Below, in pieces: positions 21,105 to 36,899 of a stretch of DNA of 64,000 bases. How positions within the stretch are numbered: position 1 is the stretch's first letter; the number at the start of each line of letters is the position of its first letter. The notes under the pieces are model-generated. The model was not told the origin of the DNA. It made no database searches and worked only from the letters and a program-made list of their open reading frames with translations. Source of the stretch: a bacterium A37T11 (GTDB lineage Bacteria > Bacteroidota > Bacteroidia > Sphingobacteriales > Sphingobacteriaceae); the NCBI GenBank assembly GCA_900109895.1, contig FOBR01000005.1, positions 186,001 through 250,000 of the forward strand. Reading direction: 5' to 3'. The position numbers and the translations under genes were made by a program.

Positions 21105-23612
21105 TTATTTATTTTTCAATTTCTGCAACCGTTCTTTTGCTGAAGGTATGACATCATCATCTTCCGTATAATTTTCAATCACACTTTTCAATGTACTTCT
21201 CGCCTGCAAAGTATCACCCTTGCGGGTATAAATATCCGCAAGAAGAATGAAGCTCTTAGCCACCCAATAATCGTGTAAAGCCATATTTTTGATTACATCA
21301 AAGGCTGACTCCTGAGCTTTGTCATACTGTTTGTTATCATACTGAAGTCGGCCCAGACGGTACCGGGCCTCGGCACTGACTGCCGTTTGGCTTTTCAGTG
21401 CCGCCAAATTCAGTTCTTTCATCTCGGCCTCCAAATTTCCCTCCTGTTCCAAGGCCATTGCGCTGTACAAGTGAGCTTTGGCAATATCCTCCTCAGTAGC
21501 CCCATTGAAATCTTTGATCAATTTTACGTACTTATTCATCTGGTCAAAGTCACCAATTTCGAAATAACAAACCATTAGATTAGATATGGCGTAGCCATAT
21601 TTATCTTTATAATCTGCATTGAGCTCTAATTTTTTGAGGTGCACGATTGCCTCGTTGTATTTCTTCAAGTTTAGGTATAGCTCAGCGACCGTCAATAAGG
21701 TTTGCTCCGTATATTGGCTTGTCCAGTCGTTTAGTATAATGTTGAGATCGTGCAGCGCCTCCTCCGGATGCCCCGTATGGTATAGACTCACCCCTCGGAT
21801 ATAGCGCGCATGCTTCTCCTGCCTAGGTTTCGGGAATTTATCAAAATATGCATTTATTGCCTCCACCGCCGGACCGTATTGGCCCCTTGAAAACAAGGTG
21901 AGTCCTGCCTGAAAAGTCAAATTATCCTGTTCAGTGTCACTAAGGTCAGCAATATTAGCGGAGGTAGCGTACTTAATAAAGCCTGCAGCATCCCCTTGAT
22001 CCAAGTAAATATTTTGAATGGAAAGCAGTGCTTGCGATGCCTCATCGGTTGTGGCATAATCCTTCACGATCTGCTGGAAGGTTACCAGAGCGGATTCGGT
22101 GTCATTTTTATTATATTGGATAAGCCCAATAATCATCAACGCCCTAGGAACATAACTACTGCGGGGGTACTGTTCGATCATCTTTTTTAAGCCTTCGATC
22201 GCGGTATCGTAATCTCCAGTCGTGAAATGAATATAAGGAATCTCAAACGCTACATCATCCGCATAATTCGAACCCGGAAATTTTTCAACAACAGATCTCA
22301 AGGTGTTAATCTTAGATTCATTATCTCCTTGTAACCCTTGGATTATACCATGCTGAAACAACGCATAATCCTGATTAGGAGCTTTATCGCTGATCAATTG
22401 GTCATAATATTCGTTTGCACGTACATAATTTCGCATGGACAGATACGAATCGCCTAACCGTGCAATCACATCATCATATATACTTTTATCCAATAAGCTT
22501 TCCTTTGATTCCAGAAAACGTTCAAAATATTCTGCCGCCAAGCCATATTTATTAATTCGGAATGCAGCATATGCCAAGCCATAATTTGCATAATTATATA
22601 CATTCGTGGTTCGCGCGGCAGGCAACAAAAGGAACTTAGAAAAGTTATCCACCGCTTCATTATATTTTCTAACTTCATACATGGCCTCCGCCTTCCAATA
22701 TTTAGCTAATGAAGCCATTTCCGGGTCAAGTTGAAATTTTTCCGATCGCATAAACATGGATATACTATTTTCGAAAGCACGTTCGTTATAGAACTCCAAT
22801 CCACGGTAATAGGTTAACTTTTGATAAATGCTATCATCTTTGCGCGTTCTATTAGTAAAAGATTCTAACAAATATACGGCTGTTAAAAAATTGCTGCTGC
22901 CAGATAAAACCTCAGCCATTCGTGATTCCGTCGTCTCAACTATTTTTGTCTCAGAATTACGATTAAGATCAGCATTTTTTAGCGCAATATATGCCTGAAA
23001 GGGCTTCAAGGCACTTTGGACCGAGTCTAATTCATATAAAACTTTAGCATAGTTATACAGCCCATCCGCTTTTAATTCCTGGTCATAATCCATACTGGAA
23101 GCTTTGTAAAATTCATCTCTTGCCCGATGCTTATCGCCAGTTTCTATAGAAATATTACCTAAAGCAATTACTGAGCTCTGATAAAAAGCATCCAAAGGCT
23201 CCACTTTTGACAGAATAGATGCCGCTCTTTCGTATTCGTGCGCACGATATGCCAAGATGCCAATCCTGTTATTATCGATATTACTGCGTAAGGCGTTGGG
23301 GTACCTTTTCGGCAAAGGACTGTGAAAAGCTTGCCTATAGGGGTTCCTGACAAAATACATACTGGCGACTGTTTGCCGAAGTTCAATTTCGAACGCACCT
23401 CTGTCTATATTCATATCCGGACTTCGGCGCACCTTTATGGCGTCGGCCAACATCGGGCGGTAATCACGCACCACCGAAATCGAATCAAAAACTGCAGTTT
23501 GCCTTGGCTGCTTTTCCTCTTTTTGTGCATATCCTGTAACCAGCACAACAGAAAAGATGGCGGTAAGTATATTTTTCAGATAATTACAGCCAAATACTTT
23601 CTTAAGTAACAT
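21105..23612 (-). CDS. Large tetratricopeptide-repeat protein, periplasmic/envelope
   Basis: 835-residue exported protein. A signal peptide ends near VTGYAQ, followed by FDSISVVRDYRPMLADAIK and then TPR/Sel1-like helical repeats through the C-terminus (e.g. AYRAHEYERAASILSKVEPLDAFYQSS; ARLGDSYLSMRNYVRANEYYDQLI; FTTGDYDTAIEGLKKMIEQYPRSSYVPRALMIIGLIQYNKNDTESALVTFQQIVKDY). Such TPR arrays serve as protein-binding scaffolds, with BamD/YbgF-like resemblance in the repeats that carry YPxSxY. No catalytic domain is visible. It stands alone on its strand between two plus-strand genes. Function beyond a scaffold role is not known. Confidence 0.85.
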   Translation of the reverse strand: MLLKKVFGCNYLKNILTAIFSVVLVTGYAQKEEKQPRQTAVFDSISVVRDYRPMLADAIKVRRSPDMNIDRGAFEIELRQTVASMYFVRNPYRQAFHSPLPKRYPNALRSNIDNNRIGILAYRAHEYERAASILSKVEPLDAFYQSSVIALGNISIETGDKHRARDEFYKASSMDYDQELKADGLYNYAKVLYELDSVQSALKPFQAYIALKNADLNRNSETKIVETTESRMAEVLSGSSNFLTAVYLLESFTNRTRKDDSIYQKLTYYRGLEFYNERAFENSISMFMRSEKFQLDPEMASLAKYWKAEAMYEVRKYNEAVDNFSKFLLLPAARTTNVYNYANYGLAYAAFRINKYGLAAEYFERFLESKESLLDKSIYDDVIARLGDSYLSMRNYVRANEYYDQLISDKAPNQDYALFQHGIIQGLQGDNESKINTLRSVVEKFPGSNYADDVAFEIPYIHFTTGDYDTAIEGLKKMIEQYPRSSYVPRALMIIGLIQYNKNDTESALVTFQQIVKDYATTDEASQALLSIQNIYLDQGDAAGFIKYATSANIADLSDTEQDNLTFQAGLTLFSRGQYGPAVEAINAYFDKFPKPRQEKHARYIRGVSLYHTGHPEEALHDLNIILNDWTSQYTEQTLLTVAELYLNLKKYNEAIVHLKKLELNADYKDKYGYAISNLMVCYFEIGDFDQMNKYVKLIKDFNGATEEDIAKAHLYSAMALEQEGNLEAEMKELNLAALKSQTAVSAEARYRLGRLQYDNKQYDKAQESAFDVIKNMALHDYWVAKSFILLADIYTRKGDTLQARSTLKSVIENYTEDDDVIPSAKERLQKLKNK

Positions 23613-23953: not shown

Positions 23954-25642
23954 ATGTTTATAAAAAAGCGCCAATTATTTACCATATTAAGTATCTTTTG
24001 TTTACTCAATAATTTCGTTTTTGCTTTTGAAAAAATTGTAGCTGTCCACTTAAATACAGCTTTAATAAGGCAATATGAAAAAGCTGAATGGACGGTTTCT
24101 ATTCATACTACGTTCGGAAACCCATATTTGCAGGAGGATGTTGCGTTAAATATGGAATTAAAGGCACCCTCAGGAAAAAAGCTTCTGCTACCCTGTTATT
24201 ATGAATCAGGTAAGAGTGGAGGAATTTCGGTTTGGAGATCAAGGTTCTTACCACAGGAAAACGGCAAATATGAATACTTTTTTCGATTCTATCATAATAA
24301 CAAGCTCATTTCTGAAACTAGTAAATTATCATTTACCACTAAATTTTCCAAAAAAAAAGGTATTCTTCACGGTCATGACAACTGGACTTTTCAGTTTGAT
24401 AACGGTACACTATTTAGAGGTTTAGGCGAGAACTTTTGTTGGGAATCAAGAGCTATTGACGATTCGAAATTTTATAAAACCTTACATGAAAATAGTAATT
24501 ATAATTATGAGTACATGCTGCCAAGGCTTGCTAGTTTTGGCGCAAACTATTTCCGTACCTGGATTAATTCCTGGAATTTACCTCTTGATTATAAGGACGG
24601 TATTAACAATCATCGTTATGATAAATCTGACAACTATTATCATCCACAAGCTATTAATAAACTAGATCGGCTTGTGACCTTGGCAGATTCCTTAGGCCTA
24701 TATATCATGTTGACATTAGGGCCCGGATCACATAATGCAATGAATGGACGTCACGAAGTAACTATGGATGAATTTTTCATAGATGAAAAATCCAAGACTG
24801 AATATAAAAATAGGCTTCGTTTTATTGTCGCTCGATGGGGTTTTAGCCCGGCAATAGGAGCCTGGGAATTCTTTAATGAAGTTGACAATATACAATACCA
24901 GCATAAAGAGCACCCAATACCGGCTGATCAAATAGTAAATTGGCATAAAGAAATGGCTGATTACCTAAAATCAATTGATCCGTTTGGACATTTGGTCACT
25001 ACAAGCATTTCACATAGAGATCTAAATAGTTTGAACAGCATTCAAAAAATGGATTTTAATCAAAAACATATATATAAAAATACCCATTCTATACCACAAA
25101 CATTAAAACAATACTCTGATCAATACCATAAACCTTATGTCATTGGTGAATTTGGGTACGAGTGGGATTGGTCTAAAAACTTTAATGATTTTGGTAAAGA
25201 AATGGATAACGATTACAAACGTGGGCTTTGGTACGGCTTGTTCTCTCCCACGCCTATTCTGCCCATGTCTTGGTGGTGGGAGTATTTTGAAAGTAAAGGA
25301 ACAGATCAATATTTAAGTAAAGTGAAACCAATTTTAACTCAAATGTTAAAATCAGGCCAAGGAAATTTTAAACAGACCATATCATTTGCATCTTCAACAG
25401 CAATAGAAATTTACAGCGTACAATGTGGTGCTAAAATCTATGTATACCTATTTAATCCAACATCAAGCCCAATAGAAACAACCATTAACGTTAATGTTAA
25501 AAATAATGTTGTTCATAACGTAAAAATATATGATTGTGAAAGTGGATTATATAAAAAATTTAAAGCAATTATTATAAATAATACATTAGTTATAAATAAA
25601 TATAATTTACAAGCAAATTCTGATGTTGTCCTTATTATTTAG
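23954..25642 (+). CDS. Secreted glycoside hydrolase, DUF5060 + GH5-like (cellulase-type) barrel
   Basis: 562-residue exported enzyme. Signal peptide (1-24, ending FAFE), then a DUF5060-type beta-sandwich (about 27-130, EKAEWTVSIHTTFGNPY... WRSRFLPQENGKYEYFFRF), then a (beta/alpha)8 barrel (about 140-460). The likely acid/base is E309 in AWEFFNEV and the nucleophile E399 in VIGEFGYEW, with the conserved-looking WWWEYF following. A short beta domain closes the C-terminus. Substrate not evident; relatives act on beta-glycans or alpha-glycosides. The gene is visibly richer in A/T and in AAA/AAT/TTA codons than its neighbours, which suggests it was acquired. It is convergent with the fibronectin-III gene, 14 bases apart. 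Confidence 0.82.
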   Translation: MFIKKRQLFTILSIFCLLNNFVFAFEKIVAVHLNTALIRQYEKAEWTVSIHTTFGNPYLQEDVALNMELKAPSGKKLLLPCYYESGKSGGISVWRSRFLPQENGKYEYFFRFYHNNKLISETSKLSFTTKFSKKKGILHGHDNWTFQFDNGTLFRGLGENFCWESRAIDDSKFYKTLHENSNYNYEYMLPRLASFGANYFRTWINSWNLPLDYKDGINNHRYDKSDNYYHPQAINKLDRLVTLADSLGLYIMLTLGPGSHNAMNGRHEVTMDEFFIDEKSKTEYKNRLRFIVARWGFSPAIGAWEFFNEVDNIQYQHKEHPIPADQIVNWHKEMADYLKSIDPFGHLVTTSISHRDLNSLNSIQKMDFNQKHIYKNTHSIPQTLKQYSDQYHKPYVIGEFGYEWDWSKNFNDFGKEMDNDYKRGLWYGLFSPTPILPMSWWWEYFESKGTDQYLSKVKPILTQMLKSGQGNFKQTISFASSTAIEIYSVQCGAKIYVYLFNPTSSPIETTINVNVKNNVVHNVKIYDCESGLYKKFKAIIINNTLVINKYNLQANSDVVLII

Positions 25643-25656
25643 TTTATATAAAAAAC

Positions 25657-27648
25657 CTAAGGTTGGCTCACACTAATTTCTTTGGAAAAATCACTTTCAA
25701 TACCTTTATTATTTATCGAGGTAACGTAGTAATAATAATTTCCTTTGGCTAGATTAGCATCTTCATATCCTGACAATTCGTTTTCTGAAGGTTTTACTTT
25801 GCCAATTAAGCGAGGCGCATGATTACCATCTGAACGGTATACTTGATAGGAAACAATATTTTCACTTTGGTTCCATGAAAGTAAAACAGAAAGGTGATCT
25901 TTTGCTACCGTAAATAAGGAAGGAGGTAGTGGTTTATTCAATGGAGCATCAATTTGAAGGATTGGTCCAAAGGCACTTTCTTTTCCTTGCAAATTGAAGG
26001 CCTTAACGGAATACCACCGTGACTTTCCGGGTGGAATGGTGTCGACATATTCATTCATGGCCTGATCCACCAGGTTGGTTAAAAGAACTAAACTATCGTT
26101 TTTTTGTGCCTTTTTATATACATGGTATCCGGCTACTTGATATTCAGATCGTTGAAGGTCCCGCCAGGTAATGGATACAACTGTATCGGAAAGCCATAAA
26201 AATCGCATGCCTGACGGAGTAGCTACCCGTGAGCTGCTGTCTGCTAAGCCTACCAATACGCTTACTTCATCCGATGGAGGCCCAAGCGATTGTGTAGTAG
26301 AAACTGCGGCAACCATATAATGGGCATGCGTCAATTCGGCTACCCGGTTGGTATCAGTATACATTTGTATACCCGGTTTTAAAGGGATCAAACCACTTAC
26401 TAATTGCGGTTTATCGTAAGAAGTGAACGACCGGTATAAGTAAAAACCACTTACATTCAGGCTATCTGTATATGACCACTCAAGCCTCACCAAGTTACCC
26501 TTACTGCTTGCAGACAGGTTTTGCGGAGGGAGCAATCTAACAGCCCCGTGATAAATTCCCGAAACGCGGGGAGAGGCCCTGGATATATTGGATTCACCCT
26601 GTACCAGTAATTGGTAATAATAACTTTTTCCTGCTCTGATAGCGTTATCTACAAAATCACTATCTGTAGTTGGTACTGTTGCCACTAAGGTGTATCCATC
26701 ATCATATAGCTCACTGCGCATCACCAGAATATTTTGTGCTGATTTTGTTTTGCTTAAAGGATCCCAATAAATTCGGATACCTTGGTTTACCGCTTGCGTA
26801 TTAATATTGAAAGCAGTCTCTAGGTTTCTTCGACCACCAGACTGCACCGACACCGTGTCTGAACAGTTGCCCGTATTACCTATCAGATCCTTGCTTTGTA
26901 AATAGTAATCATAGCGAATCCCAAAATGTGAGGTCGTATCTGTCATTAGGTATATTACAGAGTCTCCATCGATTGAATTGCGGATTCCCACGGGCGTGGT
27001 TAATCGGGAAAACGGTAGGGTAGATCCGGCTACTTTTCGGTAAACCTCAAATAGTGGGGCGGCATTATCGGAGGTGGTAGCCCATTCTATGTGGACCTGC
27101 CTTTCTCCAGGGTCTGCCAATAAGGTCGAAATGGGAGAAAAGACCGGGTGATCTTCCTCATAACGGATAGGTTCAGATGTCATTTCTTGGCTTTCGCCCT
27201 GTACAGCTAGTTGATAACGATACGTATTGCCCAGGTGTGCCGTAGTATCCAATACGGATAAACCGAGACTAAGCTGAATGATCGGAACAGCCATTTGTAC
27301 AAATAATCCGGCAGAATCCGGCTTGTTCCAAACCTTCCATAAGGTATCTGCCATGCGGGCAGATGGAAGAGCATAACCTGGAAATAAACCAGCATAGCGG
27401 GTCATGCGGTATTGAAACTCATTGCTGCTGGCAGCTGTTATAAAACTGGCTATCAGCTCGGGTTCTTTTTTATCTTCTATACGAAATAGTCTAAACCCCG
27501 ATTTTGGTATAGCAACATCCGAAAAACTAATATATAACCCATGAGAAGTACCAGTAAAAGAGATACGGCGTGAATTCTGTTGCGCCAGCAGTACGCTCGG
27601 TAATACTGCCAAACATAAAATAAAGTGTTTAATACAAGAGTTCATCAT
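25657..27648 (-). CDS. Secreted fibronectin type III repeat protein
   Basis: 663-residue exported protein, last of a three-gene operon. A signal peptide ends near VLLAQ. After an N-terminal part of about 150 residues with a beta-rich character (RRISFTGTSHGLYISFSDVAIPKSGFRLFRI), FN3-like domains repeat at roughly 95-105-residue spacing (markers: RQVHIEWATTSDNAAPLFEVYRK; NQGIRIYWDPLSKTKSAQNILV; NLVRLEWSYTDSLNVSGFYLYRS; TVVSITWRDLQRSEYQVAGYHVYKK; VLLSWNQSENIVSYQVYRS). No enzyme domain and no obvious type IX sorting domain at the C-terminus. It begins 3 bases after the giant gene, so it is almost certainly made with it. Likely an adhesive or structural surface component. Two ATGs stand in tandem at the start. 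Confidence 0.85.
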   Translation of the reverse strand: MMNSCIKHFILCLAVLPSVLLAQQNSRRISFTGTSHGLYISFSDVAIPKSGFRLFRIEDKKEPELIASFITAASSNEFQYRMTRYAGLFPGYALPSARMADTLWKVWNKPDSAGLFVQMAVPIIQLSLGLSVLDTTAHLGNTYRYQLAVQGESQEMTSEPIRYEEDHPVFSPISTLLADPGERQVHIEWATTSDNAAPLFEVYRKVAGSTLPFSRLTTPVGIRNSIDGDSVIYLMTDTTSHFGIRYDYYLQSKDLIGNTGNCSDTVSVQSGGRRNLETAFNINTQAVNQGIRIYWDPLSKTKSAQNILVMRSELYDDGYTLVATVPTTDSDFVDNAIRAGKSYYYQLLVQGESNISRASPRVSGIYHGAVRLLPPQNLSASSKGNLVRLEWSYTDSLNVSGFYLYRSFTSYDKPQLVSGLIPLKPGIQMYTDTNRVAELTHAHYMVAAVSTTQSLGPPSDEVSVLVGLADSSSRVATPSGMRFLWLSDTVVSITWRDLQRSEYQVAGYHVYKKAQKNDSLVLLTNLVDQAMNEYVDTIPPGKSRWYSVKAFNLQGKESAFGPILQIDAPLNKPLPPSLFTVAKDHLSVLLSWNQSENIVSYQVYRSDGNHAPRLIGKVKPSENELSGYEDANLAKGNYYYYVTSINNKGIESDFSKEISVSQP

Positions 27649-27651
27649 TTT

Positions 27652-30600
27652 CTAATAATCAAAATCGTTTGATTCACTACACTTTTCACTGGTATACCTT
27701 AAGTTAAATTCGATGTGCTTTTGGCAATTTCCCGCACAAAACTTCATTAAAGCTTGAAAGCCAACTCCGATATGCCCACTTACAAATAAGCACCAGGCAC
27801 TAGCATTAAGATTGATGGATGTACAAGCCGCAGCAGTAAAGCTAGGGTCACCTCCAGTATTTGCAAAAGCAAATTTAGTACCCAATTCAGCACTGGCATC
27901 CCCTTTGATACCACAGGCCCCACCCAGTACAGCCAATTTCGCATAGGCGCGAGCAAAGAGCATTGCTCCTATGCCAATTTCCATATCAGGACCAAATTCT
28001 GCGTATATACGCCCATCTAATCCCGCCATAGCAGCCACTTCAAAATCGGCAACCCAAAAATTCACACCAAACTTTACTTCTTCAATAATGTCTTTGCGAC
28101 CAGTCATAAAAAATCCATTAATACCCTGGCGGTGATATATGGCAGGTAATTTACGGACATAAGACACCTCCGTAATCCGTTGTTCAAGTGCAGGAGAAAT
28201 TTCAGGATAAGAACCTATGCATATACCTGCCCCGAGTGGAAAAATAAGTGGAACGGCCCTCACATTAATATTCGCCCCAGCATAAAAATACCAACCACGC
28301 GGATCAAACAATACTTCAATACCTAGTTTAGTGAGTGAAACCGCACCGGCATCTAGTTTTGGCATGCTCAGCGATCCAAAGATGCGGCCATTTTTAAAGT
28401 CAAAGTCAAACTTCATACCACTAAAACTATCACCAGCACCATTAGCTGCATCGGATATTTTTTGAACTGGAAGCTCATCCTGCAGTCCTTTGAGCGCTTC
28501 CATAGCGACCATTTTGGCTTCCTGCTTTGCTTCATTGGCCAGATTAATACCCGTAAACCCATCAATTACGCCATTCAATTGCAAGAGAGAACCAATTGGG
28601 TTTTTGTCAATATTATTGATAGCGTCCATACCCTGTCCTACCAATTTCCATTTGGCAGACAATTCTTTCATCTGTTGTTTAATTTCACCAATAGGGATCA
28701 TCTGATGAAAGGTATTATTAATTTCATTGAGCTGTGCTTCGATCTCACTTCTCATTTCATTGAGGCCAGCATCCTGCATGACTTCGTCGATGACGTCTGC
28801 AGCCATATTATGGGCTTCCTTTTTGTATTCACCCAATACTACTTCGACTTGCTTTTTTAGGAGGTCTGCTTGCTGCTGTGCAGTCTCAGTCACCATACTT
28901 ACCAAATTAGCTTTGAGAGCCTGCGCTTGTCCGGGTAGTTGTACCAAACCTGCAATACCAAGTCCTGCCGTTTTAAACACTTGAGATGCTGTGTTATTTA
29001 AGCTTGTAAATAAAGTACCACCAGGACCTTTAAAATCAAATTTAAGTGGGCCAATGTTAAGTTGGGGAGTATCATCGCTTCCACCCAATGCCTTTTCTCC
29101 GGGAAGATAGGTCAGATCGACCGCAATGTTATCCGGCACGTTTGGCAAGTGAAGGCTCATAGTTCCAGAGAGTACCAACCGATCAAAATTACTATAAAGT
29201 GCACGAGGCTTAAATGAAAGCTGCTTGTAAAGCGTGATGTCATTACTAGAGGCGTTGAAACCAAAAACCTCTTCGTCGTTGCTTAATAAAGACATATACT
29301 GGATGTCCAGGCGCTCATTTGGATTAGTCATACCATCTAACCCTTGTATATATGCTGCCTGCCCCTCATCACTTTTTAGGCTGAGTTTATAATGTCCTTG
29401 CCCGGCTATACGGCCCACATCCGGGTCATACATAAAGACGATTTCGGTCAGTGGGTTAACATTGAGCTTTATGTGCGCGGCTCCACCTAAATAAAAATTA
29501 TTCCGTAAAGATGAAGAAGCTCCCGAACCCATAGAAGGACATATTAATTCGCCAGGTATTAGCGTCATTTGCGGAATTTTTAAGTCTGCCCGGCCAGTAT
29601 AAAGTGTCAGGTCATGCATGACAATACCACCAGACGTGTTAGACAATTCCCACGAATTCGTACGAAGTTGCCATTTTTCCAGATCAATCTTGAGCGAATC
29701 ATTCGTTTCTATACGCTCCAGCCGATCATGGCGCAAGACCGCTTTTCCAGCTTGTAAGTTTATCGGTATGTTGCCTTGAATGGTAGAACTTAGATTCATA
29801 AACAAGTTAATGCTGTCGCCCAGGATAAAAGATTCGCGATTGCCCGTTTGGTCTGTAAGACCGTCAAAACCCAGATATTTGAAATTAATAGGCCCACCAT
29901 TATCAGTAGAGAGAGAGAATTGCTTTAACGGATAGGGTAGGTCCGTGCGGAAAACTGGGATTTTTACTTTTTCGGACCCTGCCGCCAGCCCATAATTACC
30001 CAAGAAAAAATCCTTTTCGTCAGAGATGGTCATATAGCTACTTGGAAAATTGAAGGAGTGGTTTACAATCCTTACTTTAGCGCTCAGTATGCCCGTCGTG
30101 TCTGACCCGGATTTTAAAATGCACATCGACTCCTCTTCAGGCGCAGACGCTTCAGCCATAAATACACCAAATGCATTTATCCTTATCTTTCGCATGTTTA
30201 GATCCAAACGATTCTCCACAGGGACTGCCAGTGGCACCCCAGCGGCATTATGAATGTTTGAAGGTTTTATAGCCAAATCATTGAAAGGGAGAACCTGGTC
30301 AGTTTGTATTTCATTAGTGACTGCAAAGTTTCCGTTTTGGAGTTTACCAAAAATTTCGCCACTTACGTGGTATAGACCGTCATCGGATCGCTTCATTTCA
30401 CTGATTCTTACAGGAAAACCATAGAGCTTACTTACATCAATATCTTTTACCTCACTGATGGTTAAATTAAGCGTATCAGAACCCCCTACTCTATAAGATT
30501 TACTTTGATATTTTATTGAGCTGCCAATAAACGTTTTCCCAGGTTCTGAATAGGCAGTTTTAATAGAAATAGGAAAGTCTTTCACCCTATTTCTTTGAAT

Positions 30601-33600
30601 AATTCTTAATTCTGGCCTTGCGACAAGAAGTGTGTATTCCCCATTTTCTGTTGTGGTAGTGCTTATAGATGATTGACCTCCTGTACCTTCATCCTGATAA
30701 ACCAGGGCATTTTTTACCGGGAGGCCAGAATCAGCCATTGTGACCCGTCCTTTTAATAATTCGGCTCTCTTAACCCGGATAAGTACAATACGCATCTTAT
30801 TGTCATCCGGACTAACGATATTACTTTTCACAGTTGGAACGATCAGGTTACTGTTTTTTGGATCGATTTCCTGGTTGCCATTATCTGCCCAAATAGTAAA
30901 ATTATCCGTTGCATTGTTGGAGAATTCGATTTTAACATTGCCATATAAATTCGAGTAAGCGGTTATGCTATCAGGTCCTTCCACTCGTAGCCTGACATTA
31001 GGTACCACATTGCCATTTTCATCCATCACGCGAACCAACATTCGGTGTTTTCTTTTGGTTAAGGCAAAGTCGCCGAGGTATTCATCCGCTTTGCCAGGAT
31101 TTACTCCAACAGTTCGTGGCATATAAGCGGGGTCATAAGGCAGTATGAGGATGGAGTCTGGCCGCGCAGGCAGATCAATGTCAAATCGCTGCAAATTATC
31201 AACCAGCGTAACCACAGGAGTCACAGGTGCAGAGACTACTAACGGGTTTAAATGACTGGCAGTAACTTCTTGCACTGTAAGCGTATTTGGTGAAAACTGG
31301 CTTATTTGTGTGGCTACATTCACCACAGCCCTTTTACCAATGGATACGGTAGGTCCAACGGTAAGCTTTGTTATACGAGTTCCAGAAACTACCTGGGTAG
31401 ACAAACTCCCTAATGTGCCAAGTGGAGTAACGGTAGGGGTAGCGATGACTCGCGATTGCGACTGTTGGATTACATTATTGTTAACAGCGGCTTTTACAGA
31501 ATTGGCTAAGAAACCGAATGATATATCATTATTAACTTTAGGGGCTGGCGACATTTTGTTTCCCGTGTAGGAATAGGTATCAGTCCAACGACCGTTTATT
31601 TTGAGTTTCACCCTAGCAGCCACACCCGAGGCATGATTATCAGCATCAATGACATAACCAAATGCATTATTGGCAGCTGGGGCTAAAGCGGTGTTCCATA
31701 CATATTGGCGGCCGCTACGTCCCATATCAAGCGCTCCAAGCTCCGTTTGAAATCCCTCTGAAGGTGTTATCGTATATCCGGAGGCGCTGAGCACAGACAG
31801 CGTCGTCCAGCTACGACCTTTAGATGAACTATATATATTATATGGAAAGTAAGGGTTAGATGAAGTCAGGAGGCTACTTAAGTCGTCAAATTTGTAATAT
31901 CCATTATCGTCGGTTTCAGTATAAAAATAAACGCCTTTATTATTTATGGACACCTCGAGCCTCATGGTGACACCTTTTATTCCGAGCGTGGTGCTGTTGT
32001 CTGTAATGCGCCCACGTACAGTAGCAGGTTCTGGCAAAATACGCAAATAGGTGTCCTGTGTTGTATTCGGGTCAAATTCACTGTTAAATACAACCGAGGA
32101 AATATCATTAGAGTTTAACTGTCCCGGTAAGTCAGGTCCGAACGATAAATTTTCAGACTCACTGCGCGTAGATAGGTTTTTGGTATCTGGAAATTCTAAA
32201 TAAGCTTTTTGAAATGCAGTAGACCCTTCCCGATCCTTATTATCAGCTTCAATCAAAATAATGTCGTTTTCCTTGCCCTTAGATTTCACGACATTTGGAA
32301 AAATAACTGTACCATCCCCAGTGCTTGCCCCTTGCCTGAAAAGTATATAAGAAGAGAGGGTGGTGGTGGTTGAGGGTAGAAAAGCAGAATTTAAATACAC
32401 CAACCTTGTTGGTAAGCTTCCAATGCTTCTCTTTCCGATAGTGCGTATGGAATTATAGGCCTTGTTTGTTGTTGAAATATTTTGAGTGGAGGTATTTGCT
32501 ACAGAAACATTTTTGGTAATAGACAAAAGCATTTCCTTATTGATGTCAATACCCTGTACTACGGGCCACTCACTTCGTAGAGGGCTATTTGCCACCCGAT
32601 AAATGTTGATGGGTACATTCGGAAAATCTGTAAGCGTTTCCGGATGGTCTAATTTTTCTACTTTCTGTACATGTACTTTTAGATTAAAAGTTTGTACATA
32701 AGAGTTGAGGGTTCCACAATCGGTGTTTTGCCAAGGTTGTAATATAATGTCATTATCAGGTGCACAATAATACGTATTATCAGGTACAATCCTGTACACC
32801 CGGGTGACTTTTCCATACGTATCACTCCTAAATTCTCCTGATCCTGTTGTTAATGATCCATTTTCGCTTATGCCTGTATAGTCGCTATTGGGAAAATCAA
32901 AGGTAAAATTGCCGTCAGCATCAGTCATCACCGTTTGAAGCACTTTTAAATTATCCGATTTGTACTGTCCATTTATGAATATTGTTCCAGAGATCCTCTT
33001 AGTGGTATGATCTATAACAGGTGGTTTGTAGTTGTCAATCACTTCCTGCGCCATATAAGGCATTGGGGTCATTCCAATCTGGTTAATACGCATGGAGCGA
33101 ATATTTTGTGTTGCGAATGCAGTGGCGCCAACACTAAAAGTAGACGTTATCGGCCTTGCGGCAGTAGTTATATTAGTAGGAACCGCAGGGGTTTCATCTT
33201 TATCCATAAGGTAAAAAACCACCAGTTTTACAGGCATATTCGCATACGGAGTAGGGGGCATACTCTTATCAGTTTTATACGTATATTGCAGTTTACCGGT
33301 TAGCCTAGAGCGGGGAGGACTCACTAGTTCCTTGGTAAGTGCCAGCCAGGTAGTGTCCGGCTGTCCATTGTACAGGAAGGATTGCCATTTAGCATAGATG
33401 CTGTCTGCAGGGGCAGATTCTTGTTCACCGAATGAAGACTCTGTTACTACTTTTGTAGCATCCTCCAAGCATATTTCATATTGGTAGGGCTCCGCATCAA
33501 GGCTTCTGAACAGGCGTTCAAAACTTACCGTGTAAGCTTCCGGCTGGGCACCTGGTCCAGGATTAGGAGTTACTCGTTCCGCAATGAGAATTTTATCACT

Positions 33601-35187
33601 TTCGCTGGAGGATGGCTTTCCATTATCATCTGTTATATCACCCTCGTATTTTGGAATGCCCAGTTTGATGTCATTTTTATAAGCCGATTTTCGGTATAGC
33701 TTAATGTGTGCACCGGCTACATAATTTCCCTTCAAACTTTCAAATGCTTCTTGTACATTCACCCGTAACGTATAGCTATTGGCATTTAATACCACCGCCG
33801 TAAGGTCTTGTCGACCTCCAGGTGTAATGTGTAAGTACTGCGCATAAGGCTTATAGTAGGGGTTAGTTGTTTCCAGTTGGTAAAGCATCGCTAGGTTGCC
33901 GGTACCACTATTATTTGCCAAACCGCTTGCGCCATAATAATCCAACCTATTGGTAGGAATTACTCCAGCACTGTCTAATGAAGAAAGAAGGCAAGTAAGG
34001 TTAAAATTGCCATTTTCATCTGTTTCTGCCGTTAAACCATCCAGCATGGATGATTCAGAAGACAGCGCACGTTTGCTTTCTTCATCCAAAGGCTCATAAT
34101 GAGCCACAGAATCGCTCCCCATGGTTTCCCTTACAAAAACCCTTTTTAGAAAAACCTGTTCATGTGAAACGGGATAGGTTTTTCCGTTAGAATCATGGGC
34201 AAAACGATACAAAAGTTGTCCGGAAATCCGTGTGGTATCTTTATAAATAGTATCTTTTTTGTATATAACCCGTTTATCCACATTCAGCGAATCTGGAACC
34301 ATCGCGCTAACCGGCTGTATATAGCTAAACGTGATCACCTCACTCTTACCCCCATTGCGGAAGGTAACGCTATTAAATGGGTCTTCTGCCTGTACCATAA
34401 GTGCATATTGCCGTCCGGGGGTAAGCTGCGGATCTGCCGGTCCATATAATAAGGTGTTGCCTTGCACGGTGCGTTCAAAGAAAGCAGGTGTCGTGGAAGA
34501 TTGCATGGCATCGTTCGGGTTACGTGGTGAAAGCATCTCTACCATTCGTACATGGTATTGCGTCGCAGGAGAACTGCCAGGAGGAGTGCTCCAGGTAATG
34601 GGGAAAGCCTGTGGCCCCAGGCTACTTAATTCCTGCTCATTAGCCGGGGAGATAATGATAGGCGGTTCAACGTTACTGATGTTAAACTCTTTACAACCGA
34701 TGGGTTCCTCAGGACTCAATGGCTCATGGCCATCATACTCCAAGGCCCTGACGCAAATGTTGTAGGTTCCTTCAGGCAGGATGAAGCCGCGGTTAATGTC
34801 AGATGCACTGATCCCAGTATAGTCGATGGTATTTGGATTAAACAAACTAACAATGTCACTGGCATTAAGGGTTTTCGTCTCAAGTGGTGCCAACTCAACC
34901 GGTTGCGGACTCCGATAGCTGTCCTTGACACTGGCCGAGACGCCATTGTCGCCGGTAATACTGCCCCGCAGCTGTATTCTGAGTGAATTGCGGCTGGTGT
35001 TAGTCAGCGTAAGCAACATCAAATCTGGCCTGGATGCATAATCGCTTACCCGGCTCAAGTAGGGAGGCATAATGCGTATCTGCACGTTTACTTGCGCCTG
35101 CGTAACTTGTTGTATAGCCAGCATGAGCCAAAAGAAACAAAACCTAAGGCAATTTTTACGTATATTCACAGTACATATTTTCATCAT
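27652..35187 (-). CDS. Giant secreted surface protein (2,511 residues), TANFOR-like N-terminus
   Basis: Signal peptide ending near VTQAQ, then about 220 residues with the look of the TANFOR domain first described in Tannerella (IRIMPPYLSRVSDYASRPDLMLLTLTN... ILPEGTYNICVRALEYDG...PPIIISPANEQEL). The middle holds several carboxypeptidase-regulatory-like beta-sandwiches (VRGRITDNSTTLGIKGVTMRLEV...DDNGYYKFDDL; LKGRVTMADSGLPVKNALVYQDEG...ENGEYTLLV). Near residues 2150-2280 a charged helical stretch could form a coiled coil, followed by a beta-rich, Cys-containing C-terminus (CTSINLNASAWCLF... FCAGNCQKH). No recognised catalytic motif. The ATG overlaps the stop of the beta-barrel gene (TGATG), and the FN3 gene follows by 3 bases, so the three are one operon. 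Function unknown; a surface or cell-contact structure fits the domains. Confidence 0.85.
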   Translation of the reverse strand: MMKICTVNIRKNCLRFCFFWLMLAIQQVTQAQVNVQIRIMPPYLSRVSDYASRPDLMLLTLTNTSRNSLRIQLRGSITGDNGVSASVKDSYRSPQPVELAPLETKTLNASDIVSLFNPNTIDYTGISASDINRGFILPEGTYNICVRALEYDGHEPLSPEEPIGCKEFNISNVEPPIIISPANEQELSSLGPQAFPITWSTPPGSSPATQYHVRMVEMLSPRNPNDAMQSSTTPAFFERTVQGNTLLYGPADPQLTPGRQYALMVQAEDPFNSVTFRNGGKSEVITFSYIQPVSAMVPDSLNVDKRVIYKKDTIYKDTTRISGQLLYRFAHDSNGKTYPVSHEQVFLKRVFVRETMGSDSVAHYEPLDEESKRALSSESSMLDGLTAETDENGNFNLTCLLSSLDSAGVIPTNRLDYYGASGLANNSGTGNLAMLYQLETTNPYYKPYAQYLHITPGGRQDLTAVVLNANSYTLRVNVQEAFESLKGNYVAGAHIKLYRKSAYKNDIKLGIPKYEGDITDDNGKPSSSESDKILIAERVTPNPGPGAQPEAYTVSFERLFRSLDAEPYQYEICLEDATKVVTESSFGEQESAPADSIYAKWQSFLYNGQPDTTWLALTKELVSPPRSRLTGKLQYTYKTDKSMPPTPYANMPVKLVVFYLMDKDETPAVPTNITTAARPITSTFSVGATAFATQNIRSMRINQIGMTPMPYMAQEVIDNYKPPVIDHTTKRISGTIFINGQYKSDNLKVLQTVMTDADGNFTFDFPNSDYTGISENGSLTTGSGEFRSDTYGKVTRVYRIVPDNTYYCAPDNDIILQPWQNTDCGTLNSYVQTFNLKVHVQKVEKLDHPETLTDFPNVPINIYRVANSPLRSEWPVVQGIDINKEMLLSITKNVSVANTSTQNISTTNKAYNSIRTIGKRSIGSLPTRLVYLNSAFLPSTTTTLSSYILFRQGASTGDGTVIFPNVVKSKGKENDIILIEADNKDREGSTAFQKAYLEFPDTKNLSTRSESENLSFGPDLPGQLNSNDISSVVFNSEFDPNTTQDTYLRILPEPATVRGRITDNSTTLGIKGVTMRLEVSINNKGVYFYTETDDNGYYKFDDLSSLLTSSNPYFPYNIYSSSKGRSWTTLSVLSASGYTITPSEGFQTELGALDMGRSGRQYVWNTALAPAANNAFGYVIDADNHASGVAARVKLKINGRWTDTYSYTGNKMSPAPKVNNDISFGFLANSVKAAVNNNVIQQSQSRVIATPTVTPLGTLGSLSTQVVSGTRITKLTVGPTVSIGKRAVVNVATQISQFSPNTLTVQEVTASHLNPLVVSAPVTPVVTLVDNLQRFDIDLPARPDSILILPYDPAYMPRTVGVNPGKADEYLGDFALTKRKHRMLVRVMDENGNVVPNVRLRVEGPDSITAYSNLYGNVKIEFSNNATDNFTIWADNGNQEIDPKNSNLIVPTVKSNIVSPDDNKMRIVLIRVKRAELLKGRVTMADSGLPVKNALVYQDEGTGGQSSISTTTTENGEYTLLVARPELRIIQRNRVKDFPISIKTAYSEPGKTFIGSSIKYQSKSYRVGGSDTLNLTISEVKDIDVSKLYGFPVRISEMKRSDDGLYHVSGEIFGKLQNGNFAVTNEIQTDQVLPFNDLAIKPSNIHNAAGVPLAVPVENRLDLNMRKIRINAFGVFMAEASAPEEESMCILKSGSDTTGILSAKVRIVNHSFNFPSSYMTISDEKDFFLGNYGLAAGSEKVKIPVFRTDLPYPLKQFSLSTDNGGPINFKYLGFDGLTDQTGNRESFILGDSINLFMNLSSTIQGNIPINLQAGKAVLRHDRLERIETNDSLKIDLEKWQLRTNSWELSNTSGGIVMHDLTLYTGRADLKIPQMTLIPGELICPSMGSGASSSLRNNFYLGGAAHIKLNVNPLTEIVFMYDPDVGRIAGQGHYKLSLKSDEGQAAYIQGLDGMTNPNERLDIQYMSLLSNDEEVFGFNASSNDITLYKQLSFKPRALYSNFDRLVLSGTMSLHLPNVPDNIAVDLTYLPGEKALGGSDDTPQLNIGPLKFDFKGPGGTLFTSLNNTASQVFKTAGLGIAGLVQLPGQAQALKANLVSMVTETAQQQADLLKKQVEVVLGEYKKEAHNMAADVIDEVMQDAGLNEMRSEIEAQLNEINNTFHQMIPIGEIKQQMKELSAKWKLVGQGMDAINNIDKNPIGSLLQLNGVIDGFTGINLANEAKQEAKMVAMEALKGLQDELPVQKISDAANGAGDSFSGMKFDFDFKNGRIFGSLSMPKLDAGAVSLTKLGIEVLFDPRGWYFYAGANINVRAVPLIFPLGAGICIGSYPEISPALEQRITEVSYVRKLPAIYHRQGINGFFMTGRKDIIEEVKFGVNFWVADFEVAAMAGLDGRIYAEFGPDMEIGIGAMLFARAYAKLAVLGGACGIKGDASAELGTKFAFANTGGDPSFTAAACTSINLNASAWCLFVSGHIGVGFQALMKFCAGNCQKHIEFNLRYTSEKCSESNDFDY

Positions 35188-36899
35188 CAGAAATTTAGTT
35201 GGTAGGCAAGTTCACCCCGGGTCTCTGTGAATGCAGGGTTGACACCCGTGATAGCACTGCCGGGATTATTGTTAGTCAGATAAAAAGAAAAACGCAGGGT
35301 CTGGATCTTGTTAATCCGGTAATTGAGGTTTGCCGTACCGTTGATGATCAAACTTTTGCTACCGTTATTGGTATCCCCCTGCATCACACTCGTGTTCAAT
35401 CCGGCCTGTAGAGCATTGTTTTTTAAGGTATAGTTGCCACCAAGACTCAGCCCCTGGTAGCTATTCTTAACATCGATACTTTTGAGGGAAGTATAGCTCA
35501 GGTTTCCAAAAAGGCTCAGCCTTTTAGCAGGGATTGAGAGTGTATAATTCAAGAAATATTGTCCAGTACGTATATTTCGGCTTGCGGCCTCTGTGCCATA
35601 ATAACTATTATAGTCATCCATGGCGCTAATATTAACTGAAAACATGATCATCTGGCTGGTCTGCGTTCCCTGGATGAGGTAGCGGGGCATGATACTGATG
35701 ACCTGAGTAGTTTGCACAATTTTGAGTGAATCGGCAAACTTGAGTGTGTTAGGCTTTTGGTTATTTGAAAAATTGCTATAGTTGATGTCCAAACCCAGTT
35801 GTTTTGTAATCTCGGCACTCAGCACGCCCGAGCCGATGAAGCGCCGGTTAGTAGCTTGCTTTTGCTGCCGTACATTGTCGTGCTGTATCCCCACACTGCC
35901 ATTTACGCGCAACTTACCATTAGGCAGGCTAAAGTTGGGAGCAAATGTCCAGCTTTCCAGGTCGTTTGAAAAAAAGTAGGATCCCATTGTTTTAAAGTCT
36001 GGGTCAATACGCCGGTAATTGACCTTCAGTCCATAGTTTTTATCTTTATAGCCCACAGCAGCATCCAGCGCCATGAACCATTCGGACGAGCCGTTGATGT
36101 CAAAGAAATTTTTTACACGGTGCAACAGCTTACTGTCAATGGAATCCAAATTGATGGGCGAGTTAATATCGCGGGTATAGATACTGATGGCCCCATTACT
36201 TTCTATAAAAAGATGTTTAATAGTCCACCGAGTGCTATAGCCCATGGAAGTATTTGCTTCGGCAAGTACATTGATGCTGTCTGGTAGGCGGATGTCAGGA
36301 CGGGAAGTACTGTCATCCTTTGCCTGGAAAAAATTAAAATCGAAATAATTAGCCTGGGTGCCATACCCTAACTTAGCCGCGTAGCCTTTACGGCTGAAGG
36401 AGAAGGGTACTAAGGCTTGCGTAGTCGTATCAATAACAGTGGCCCTGTTCAGACGTCCTGCCATAAAACCAACACGAAGTTTGCCCGGGTTCAGCTCAAA
36501 ACCAGCTCCCAGCATAGTGTGACCTGCTAGCGTATAAGGAGAAAACGTGATATTGCGGTAGCCAGCATGCACCGTAATCCATTTATAAGTGGGGCTTAAC
36601 CCAAACTGATTGAACGGTTGGCGAAATGAACGGTCGTCTTTGCTCAACGTAAAACTAAAAGGAATGCTCCATCCATAGAGGCTTAGGGTAGGGCTGCCGC
36701 TCAACAAATAAGTAAACGGCTCCCGGCGTCCAGCAATTCCACTTGCATTATAAAAAATGCCGCGCAGCTCCAAGCCTCCATTAAAAGCTATTGGCTTTTG
36801 GTTACCTAGGTTTGATAGGTCTTGAGTTATACCTGAAAAGGGAAGTAACCCTAGCGCTATTATTAAAGTCCATTTAGTCCATAACTCCGATTTCCGCAT
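35187..36899 (-). CDS. Outer-membrane beta-barrel protein
   Basis: 570-residue exported protein, first of the three-gene operon. A signal peptide ends near SGITQ. The rest is made of alternating amphipathic strands (FNGGLELRGIFYN; GWSIPFSFTLSK; KWITVHAGYRNITFSPYTL; GKLRVGFMAGRLN; RNIRTGQYFLNYTLSIPAKRLSLFGNLSYTSLK) and ends in an aromatic residue (RGELAYQLNF), the usual BAM recognition end. A barrel of about 20 or more strands would fit. The family is not recognised. Its stop overlaps the start of the giant gene by one base. An export or anchoring role for the two large downstream proteins is an inference from this coupling. Confidence 0.8.
   Translation of the reverse strand: MRKSELWTKWTLIIALGLLPFSGITQDLSNLGNQKPIAFNGGLELRGIFYNASGIAGRREPFTYLLSGSPTLSLYGWSIPFSFTLSKDDRSFRQPFNQFGLSPTYKWITVHAGYRNITFSPYTLAGHTMLGAGFELNPGKLRVGFMAGRLNRATVIDTTTQALVPFSFSRKGYAAKLGYGTQANYFDFNFFQAKDDSTSRPDIRLPDSINVLAEANTSMGYSTRWTIKHLFIESNGAISIYTRDINSPINLDSIDSKLLHRVKNFFDINGSSEWFMALDAAVGYKDKNYGLKVNYRRIDPDFKTMGSYFFSNDLESWTFAPNFSLPNGKLRVNGSVGIQHDNVRQQKQATNRRFIGSGVLSAEITKQLGLDINYSNFSNNQKPNTLKFADSLKIVQTTQVISIMPRYLIQGTQTSQMIMFSVNISAMDDYNSYYGTEAASRNIRTGQYFLNYTLSIPAKRLSLFGNLSYTSLKSIDVKNSYQGLSLGGNYTLKNNALQAGLNTSVMQGDTNNGSKSLIINGTANLNYRINKIQTLRFSFYLTNNNPGSAITGVNPAFTETRGELAYQLNF

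What the first reader, a model, noticed from the sequence alone, without database searches (positions are those of the whole stretch)
25657..36899. Three-gene operon for a barrel, a 2,511-residue surface protein and an FN3 protein
The beta-barrel stop and giant-gene start overlap by one base (TGATG) and the FN3 gene follows 3 bases later, so expression is tightly coupled. The giant has a TANFOR-like N-terminus, repeated beta-sandwiches and a coiled-coil stretch, and no enzyme domain. The barrel could anchor or export the other two. I know no described function for this trio; it may be a surface, adhesion or contact structure.
Basis: partly seen in the sequence, partly recalled or inferred. Interest (0 to 1): 0.8.

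Follow-up and report, generated by a model that had tools for sequence, protein, structure and literature searches.

The report
Barrel-docked swappable giant surface protein
Three neighbouring genes make an outer-membrane barrel, a giant surface-type protein whose front end evolves together with that barrel, and a partner that evolves together with the giant's body; across a bacterial phylum the body and its partner are swapped as a pair onto the same barrel and front end, much as tools are changed on one handle.

Summary
In detail: barrel (570 aa), 2,511-aa giant and 663-aa FN3 protein lie on the minus strand with a 1-base overlap and a 3-base gap. At E<=1e-10 all 84 barrel-bearing genomes of a 395-genome phylum sample also carry the giant's N-terminus; all 73 barrel-giant pairs within 15 kb share a strand. 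New here: the locus is two modules whose border lies inside the giant gene near residue 290. Barrel similarity tracks the giant's first 300 residues (rho 0.92); FN3 similarity tracks the rest of the giant (0.80) and, given the body, not the barrel (-0.04); a second, phylum-wide set agrees. The window genome's second copy shows the swap. The N-terminus is a divergent TANFOR domain, a class published as polymorphic toxins (PMC7073777), but this giant has no recognised toxin end and no immunity-like gene. In 7 related loci the dock protein lacks the body, which is a free protein directly before FN3. Three SprA-lacking genomes keep an intact trio under purifying selection, against a strict need for the T9SS translocon. 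Most likely a barrel-anchored surface contact or adhesion structure; export route and ligand unknown.

The parts
35187..36899 (-). Outer-membrane beta-barrel protein (570 aa), first gene; conserved RRIDPDFKTMG motif at 35982-36014; ends ...AYQLNF
   Evidence: ORF; RIDPDFKTMG columns invariant in 5 relatives; beta-signal statistics; partner of the giant N-terminus
36825..36899 (-). Signal-peptide-like start of the barrel protein
   Evidence: read from the sequence; no predictor run
27652..35187 (-). Giant gene (2,511 aa), start codon overlaps barrel stop by 1 base
34312..35094 (-). Dock module: divergent TANFOR domain plus an Ig/Fn3-like domain (residues 32-292)
   Evidence: TIGR02542 E 2.4e-8; two beta-sandwiches, pLDDT 70; similarity collapses just after it in swapped pairs
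27655..34311 (-). Body module (residues 293-2511), class A1, ends ...CSESNDFDY
31864..32019 (-). CarboxypepD_reg / DUF6795-like beta-sandwich (residues 1057-1108)
   Evidence: DUF6795 and CarbopepD_reg_2 below their cut-offs
30628..30756 (-). CarboxypepD_reg beta-sandwich (residues 1478-1520)
28615..28935 (-). Helix-forming (coiled-coil-like) stretch (residues 2085-2191)
   Evidence: composition; inference only
25657..27648 (-). FN3-repeat protein (663 aa), starts 3 bases after the giant; partner of the body module

Best explanation
A two-module outer-membrane surface apparatus. Shown by sequence: (1) barrel and giant N-terminal 'dock' are one co-inherited module; (2) giant body and FN3 protein are a second co-inherited module; (3) the two are joined at a border near residue 290 of the giant, and loci differ by what stands on either side of it. 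Inferred: all three are exported by Sec; the barrel sits in the outer membrane and binds the dock, so holding (perhaps also exporting) the giant; the body projects from the cell with the FN3 protein bound to it, as a swappable contact or adhesion structure. In some related loci the barrel comes with a separate, body-less dock protein (in one case with a nuclease toxin end) while the body is a free protein next to FN3, so body+FN3 looks like a working unit of its own. The confidence given is for a barrel-anchored surface structure with body-FN3 pairing; adhesion as its purpose is less sure.
For: Conservation: 84 of 84 barrel+ genomes are dock+ at E<=1e-10; 16 have a dock only and 295 of 395 neither. 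Of 95 barrel rows 73 have a dock within 15 kb, all same strand, 60 downstream. Trio: 39 of 60 fetched phylum regions hold all three; 33 of 40 family regions show barrel-giant-FN3 in order. Co-variation: 38 trios, 703 pairs: barrel-dock 0.92, body-FN3 0.80, FN3-body given barrel 0.79, FN3-barrel given body -0.04; phylum set of 37 trios, 666 pairs: 0.68, 0.74, 0.71, -0.03; 0 of 500 permutations reach the partial FN3-body value in either set. Swaps: L128/L129 barrel 0.90, body 0.02, FN3 0.04; own two copies 0.88, 0.01, 0.09; identity drops at the same place in 10 pairs chosen for high barrel and low body similarity. Architecture: of 63 dock-body giants 55 have FN3 next and none has a free body in the fetched region; 7 of 20 dock proteins without a recognised body have one, directly before FN3 in all 7. 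Own copies: fourfold sites of the barrel gene 36% identical but the protein 89%, i.e. old copies under strong constraint. Surface setting: 21 of 42 family loci also hold a collagen-like, lipoprotein-like ORF (two tested with Pfam, Collagen 2.2e-15 and a sub-cut-off 1.9e-4).
Against: No direct evidence of binding, surface exposure or adhesion. Barrel topology is inferred from its C-terminal signature; its model is poor. Co-variation may reflect where recombination happens to fall and not physical contact. 14 of 60 fetched barrel regions showed no dock with the first profile: in L095 a better profile finds one; for L057, L060, L061, L063, L096 and L097 a dock lies on the same contig 6-15 kb from the barrel, and L054's nearest is 32 kb away; L058, L066, L074, L076 and L090 have none listed on the contig and L044's is 276 kb off. 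16 genomes have a dock without a barrel at E<=1e-10. The dock fold gives only generic Ig-like matches.
Confidence: 0.6

Rival explanations
1. The giant is a TANFOR polymorphic toxin in the sense of Jana et al. 2020 (N-terminal delivery domain, C-terminal toxin, immunity gene downstream).
For: Divergent TANFOR N-terminus; Fn3 domains were reported enriched near TANFOR genes; an AHH nuclease ends the dock protein of L065 and a sub-cut-off TNT hit lies in that of L050. The paper notes that many TANFOR proteins have no recognisable toxin and that new toxin domains can hide in such C-termini. Residues 2401-2500 of the window giant are only 43-44% identical to its closest relatives.
Against: No toxin family in the window giant; most of its C-terminal part is as conserved as or more conserved than the body (residues 2201-2400 72-74%, last 11 residues 82-91% identical to L104/L105/L107); the next gene is a 663-aa FN3 protein with a signal-peptide-like start, then an opposite-strand gene; the two dock proteins with a toxin hit lack the body domain.
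Confidence: 0.1
2. [quoted passage not shown]
For: 112 of 112 barrel+ and 133 of 133 dock+ genomes of the phylum sample have SprA, 92 SprA-negative genomes have neither (confounded by clade); a SprB-repeat protein with a T9SS sorting domain lies just upstream of the barrel in L135; the paper's hypothesis.
Against: Within the window's own family 3 of 36 SprA-negative genomes hold the barrel, each in an intact trio, against 35 of 215 SprA-positive ones (Fisher 0.32); those three trios are under purifying selection (dN/dS 0.10-0.17); no T9SS sorting domain in 51 C-termini or 35 FN3 proteins; no PorP/SprF match in the window genome.
Confidence: 0.2
3. The barrel itself is a dedicated exporter that recognises the dock, as TpsB recognises TpsA in two-partner secretion, by an unrelated protein.
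For: N-terminal dock after the signal peptide co-varies tightly with the barrel; trio persists without SprA.
Against: No POTRA or ShlB family hit; only about 10 residues lie between the signal peptide and the first predicted strand (low-confidence model); no pore or transport evidence.
Confidence: 0.2
4. A glycan-binding or nutrient-uptake locus (Sus-like).
For: CarboxypepD_reg domains are common in SusC-type proteins (recalled); a GH5/DUF5060 gene lies next to the trio; 21 of 35 FN3 proteins score against the exoglucanase CbhB model, far below its cut-off in the window protein (cut-off shown there).
Against: The GH5 gene is convergent, not in the operon; no TonB plug, SusD or glycosidase family over its cut-off in the trio. 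Whether a GH5 gene recurs beside other trios was not tested.
Confidence: 0.06

Closest known systems
TANFOR polymorphic toxins (TIGR02542; Jana, Salomon, Bosis 2020, PMC7073777)
   Same: Signal peptide plus TANFOR-type N-terminal domain on a large Bacteroidota protein; Fn3 genes nearby
   Different: Here a body domain stands where the toxin would be, FN3 and not an immunity-like gene follows, and a dedicated barrel precedes; the words barrel, porin and SprF are absent from that paper's held main text
T9SS surface adhesins with PorP/SprF anchors (SprB-SprF)
   Same: Outer-membrane barrel encoded beside a giant surface protein
   Different: No type A or B sorting domain found, barrel not matched by TIGR03519, dock at the N-terminus, trio also found without SprA
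Two-partner secretion / CDI (TpsB-TpsA, CdiB-CdiA-CdiI; recalled)
   Same: Barrel plus giant whose N-terminus pairs with it, plus a downstream gene that is exchanged with the giant's variable part
   Different: No POTRA or TpsB family found, module border near the N-terminus instead of the C-terminus, downstream partner is a secreted-type FN3 protein and not an immunity protein

Membership tests
TANFOR domain proteins (TIGR02542) | Match over the curated cut-off (67 bits) | tested here: not met
   34 bits, E 2.4e-8: significant but divergent; 10 of 35 docks match at E<=0.01
TANFOR domain proteins (TIGR02542) | N-terminal position after a signal peptide on a large protein | tested here: met
   Residues 31-149 of 2,511. 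Signal peptide read by eye
Polymorphic toxins | C-terminal toxin domain | tested here: not met
   No Pfam or NCBIfam hit in the last 450 residues; an unknown toxin is not excluded
Polymorphic toxins | Variable C-terminus with adjacent immunity gene | tested here: not met
   C-terminal part largely conserved with the three closest relatives (residues 2401-2500 43-44%); next gene is the FN3 protein
T9SS substrates | C-terminal sorting domain (TIGR04183 or TIGR04131) | tested here: not met
   None in window giant or FN3, in 51 C-termini or in 35 FN3 proteins; unknown signals not excluded
T9SS substrates | Dependence on SprA | tested here: inconclusive
   Phylum sample 112 of 112 SprA+, but three intact trios in SprA-negative genomes
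PorP/SprF barrels | Match to TIGR03519 | tested here: not met
   No match in the window genome; 3 of the 8 genomes searched have matches, so the model works
Two-partner secretion TpsB | POTRA domains and ShlB-type barrel | tested here: not met
   No family at E<=1 and no room before the first strand in a low-confidence model
SusC/SusD uptake systems | TonB plug and SusD lipoprotein in the operon | tested here: not met
   No such family in the trio
Outer-membrane beta-barrels | C-terminal beta-signal | tested here: met
   71 of 105 end in Phe, alternating hydrophobics; the window barrel ends in Phe

The most novel reading that the evidence does not exclude
A previously undescribed, phylum-wide outer-membrane display (and perhaps export) system, separate from T5SS and T9SS, in which one barrel-dock platform carries interchangeable cargo: either a toxin-type end or a large body that works with its own FN3 partner, the cargo and partner being exchanged at one fixed border inside the giant gene.
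Probability: 0.3. Interest if true: 0.85.

Novelty: new variant of a known kind. Interest (0 to 1): 0.62.

Why it matters
It gives the TANFOR class, whose export route was left as a T9SS hypothesis in 2020, a dedicated barrel partner found beside it across the phylum, and shows that in the loci fetched here most dock proteins (63 of 83) carry a large body, nearly always with an FN3 gene after it. The SprA-negative genomes make the export question directly testable. The fixed border inside the giant gene tells where to cut for binding tests: dock against barrel, body against FN3.

Tried and rejected
Barrel structure from a 4-row alignment: pLDDT 40, not used. Fold search of the dock: only generic Ig/Fn3-like sandwiches, best Z 9.0 (RbmA), no function taken from it. 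PDB sequence searches with barrel, dock and four giants: nothing, or three weak hits for the dock. PHROGs and PADLOC: nothing for barrel or giant, weak generic hits for FN3 in PHROGs. A short megablast against phage records: no match. PorV model NF033710 rang in no genome, so it says nothing. Idea that the ~4,000-aa giants are the T9SS 'grappling hooks' of Aureispira: recalled; only listings seen, and no PDB sequence match for one such giant; left open. Recent duplication of the window trio: rejected, fourfold sites are near saturation. The phylum-wide SprA link looked like support for T9SS export until the within-family search gave three exceptions.

Limits of the counts: barrel regions fetched from the phylum sample were 60 of the stronger listed rows, so the trio share is biased to closer relatives. 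One search used the 95 listed barrel rows at E<=1e-20 and the 95 strongest listed dock rows; weaker rows were left out except 7 weak barrel rows used as neighbours. The 38-trio set holds both own copies, one Flavobacteriales MAG (L009) and 35 family loci; L007/L008 were dropped there as duplicates of L100/L101, and L100/L101; both pairs were counted. The 10 pairs were chosen for high barrel and low body similarity, so only the place of the drop is informative. The 51 C-termini are 47 dock proteins and 4 free bodies. The 'no body' label means no match to four body profiles built here; the 7 such proteins with FN3 next probably have an unrecognised body. The profile of body class B was built with four of the free bodies in it.

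Literature: PMC7073777, abstract, parts 1-2 of 6 of the full text, section 9 and search passages; PMC11205867, passages only; the rest as search listings. The statement that the barrel partner and the body-FN3 module are undescribed rests on these searches of an open-access library alone.
Full report
What is there. On the minus strand the window holds three consecutive ORFs: 570, 2,511 and 663 aa, with a shared base at the first junction and three bases at the second. All three start with a signal-peptide-like stretch (read from sequence). The barrel protein has no family match. The barrels of the fetched loci carry the C-terminal signature of outer-membrane barrels: Phe last in 71 of 105 (two loci counted twice) against 5.5% of 382 other ORFs over 450 aa; hydrophobic residues at -1, -5 and -7 in 83-89%, at -3 in 57%, at -9 in 31%, at -2, -4, -6 and -8 in 6-22%. 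The giant starts with a divergent TANFOR domain (34 bits, cut-off 67) followed by an Ig/Fn3-like domain; a 279-residue model of this part has pLDDT 70 and is rich in strands, read as two beta-sandwiches. The rest has CarboxypepD_reg-type sandwiches, a 107-residue stretch rich in helix formers and no recognised enzyme. The third protein belongs to a family in which 25 of 35 members hit fn3, the window member not among them.

A second copy. The window genome holds another trio on contig C35 (576, 2,163 and 677 aa). Barrels are 88-90% identical and the first ~340 residues of the giants 75%; the rest of the giants shows no more than short weak BLAST matches, and the FN3 proteins are 23% identical. 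Fourfold-degenerate sites of the barrel gene are 36% identical, so the copies are old while barrel and N-terminus have been held nearly fixed.

Spread. In 395 genomes of the phylum the barrel profile matches 112 and a giant N-terminus profile 133 at E<=1e-3. At E<=1e-10 the numbers are 84 and 100, and all 84 are within the 100. Of 95 barrel rows, 60 have a giant N-terminus within 3 kb and 73 within 15 kb, every one on the same strand; 19 have none listed on their contig and 3 only one farther off. Of 60 fetched regions, 46 hold a giant N-terminus, 41 an FN3 protein and 39 both. In the window's own family 38 of 251 genomes carry the barrel at E<=1e-20, a patchy spread. Of the 40 regions fetched there, 33 show barrel, giant, FN3 in order (two of them with a ~200-aa gene before FN3), two have further genes and a free body between giant and FN3 (L134, L138), one stops at a contig end (L120), and four differ: L135 without FN3, L136 and L137 without a giant, L139 with FN3 upstream.

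Two modules. For 38 trios (703 pairs) normalised BLAST similarity of the barrel correlates with that of the giant's first 300 residues (Spearman 0.92) but little with the body (0.30) or FN3 (0.22); body and FN3 correlate at 0.80. Given the barrel, FN3-body is 0.79; given the body, FN3-barrel is -0.04. A second set of 37 trios from the phylum regions gives 0.68, 0.43, 0.30, 0.74, 0.71 and -0.03. Leaving out any one locus in either set, or near-duplicate barrels in the family set, changes little, and 0 of 500 label permutations reach the observed partial FN3-body value in either set. In ten pairs chosen for alike barrels and unlike bodies, identity stays high to about residue 270-300 of the aligned part and then falls to background. 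The border therefore lies inside the giant gene, after its second domain.

Fused and free bodies. Profiles of four body classes were built. Of 83 dock proteins, 63 carry a body; of these 55 are followed directly by FN3, 7 with one gene between, 1 lies at a contig end, and none has a free body in the region. The other 20 lack a recognised body; 7 of them have a separate body protein in the region. In five of the seven (L053, L055, L064, L134, L138; free bodies of 1,474-1,688 aa) the order is dock protein, one or two small genes, free body, FN3; in two (L062, L065; about 1,100 aa) it is barrel, free body, FN3, dock protein. In L057, L058, L060 and L061 the gene next to the barrel is a free body; for three of these (L057, L060, L061) a dock lies 7-10 kb upstream on the contig. 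Free bodies that were not used to build the profile are covered over most of their length: 1,541 of 1,688 (L055), 1,442 of 1,474 (L134), 1,024 of 1,104 (L062). Toxin families were hit in 2 of 51 scanned C-termini, both of body-less dock proteins: AHH in L065 (44 bits, cut-off 22) and a sub-cut-off TNT in L050. So the dock can be joined to a toxin-type end or to a body, and body with FN3 is a unit whether or not it is fused to the dock. That the small genes are immunity genes is inference.

Probably not a toxin here. In the window's class the C-terminal part is largely conserved: residues 2201-2400 are 72-74% identical to L104, L105 and L107, the last 11 residues 82-91%, though residues 2401-2500 only 43-44%; with more distant members the figures fall to 20-58%. 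The ending DFDY or DFDF recurs in L103-L105, L107, L113 and L117 but not in L045 or L109. No toxin family is found, and there is no small downstream gene. A wholly unknown toxin is not excluded.

Type IX secretion. In the phylum sample every barrel or dock genome has SprA and the 92 SprA-negative genomes have neither, but clade and SprA are confounded. Within the family, SprA is present in 215 of 251; barrels occur in 35 of 215 SprA-positive and 3 of 36 SprA-negative genomes. In those three (G558, G588, G609) a second SprA model and the PorP/SprF model find nothing, while GldM and one or two sorting-domain matches remain. Their trios are intact and evolve at dN/dS 0.10-0.17 with dS 0.10-0.31. 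The window genome itself has SprA, one sorting-domain match and no PorP/SprF. The PorV model rang nowhere and is uninformative. This speaks against a strict need for the T9SS channel; a loss of SprA too recent for the trios to decay is not fully excluded, and the three species are close relatives, so this is one lineage.

Surroundings. In 21 of 42 family loci a collagen-like ORF with a lipoprotein-like start is present, in most of these directly upstream of the barrel; of two tested, one passes Pfam's Collagen cut-off. Elsewhere a SprB-repeat protein with a T9SS sorting domain (L135) or a PKD protein (L058) takes this place, in line with the 2020 report of SprB, PKD and sorting domains near TANFOR genes. 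Neither own-genome copy has the collagen-like ORF in the fetched stretch.

Reading. Best supported is a barrel-anchored surface structure whose outer part (body plus FN3) is exchangeable on a conserved barrel-dock base. Module structure, co-inheritance, swapping and persistence without SprA in three genomes are shown by sequence; membrane location, binding, export through the barrel and adhesion are inferred.

Novelty. TANFOR proteins as a toxin class and Fn3 domains near them are published (PMC7073777). The dedicated barrel, the body class, the dock/body border and the body-FN3 pairing were not found in the passages read or the searches made, which cover open-access papers only. Hence a new variant of a known kind.

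Noticed in passing
L069, L070, L072, L077, L079, L083, L084, L085, L087, L089, L099: A class of ~3,900-4,100 aa giants with the same dock, followed by FN3 and then by a further same-strand ORF of 520-730 aa.
   Followed up: partly
G013, G034, G131: Dock domains in open frames of ~6,400 codons, the largest seen.
   Followed up: no
L105, L107, L108, L110, L112-L119, L122-L130: Collagen-like (GXY repeat) ORFs with a lipoprotein-like start in the trio locus, mostly directly upstream of the barrel, in 21 of 42 family loci.
   Followed up: partly
L009, L041, L102, L106: A ~190-210 aa gene between giant and FN3; no Pfam hit in the one tested, L102.
   Followed up: no
G000 (window genome): SprA present but a single sorting-domain (TIGR04183) match and no PorP/SprF family member: a type IX system with almost no recognised substrates of these kinds.
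   Followed up: partly
G558, G588, G609: GldM retained without SprA or PorP/SprF, which might mean another use of the remaining motor parts.
   Followed up: no
window 21105-23612: 835-aa TPR protein with YbgF-type scores and a PorW/SprE score below its cut-off.
   Followed up: no
window 23954-25642: GH5-like protein with DUF5060, convergent with the trio.
   Followed up: no
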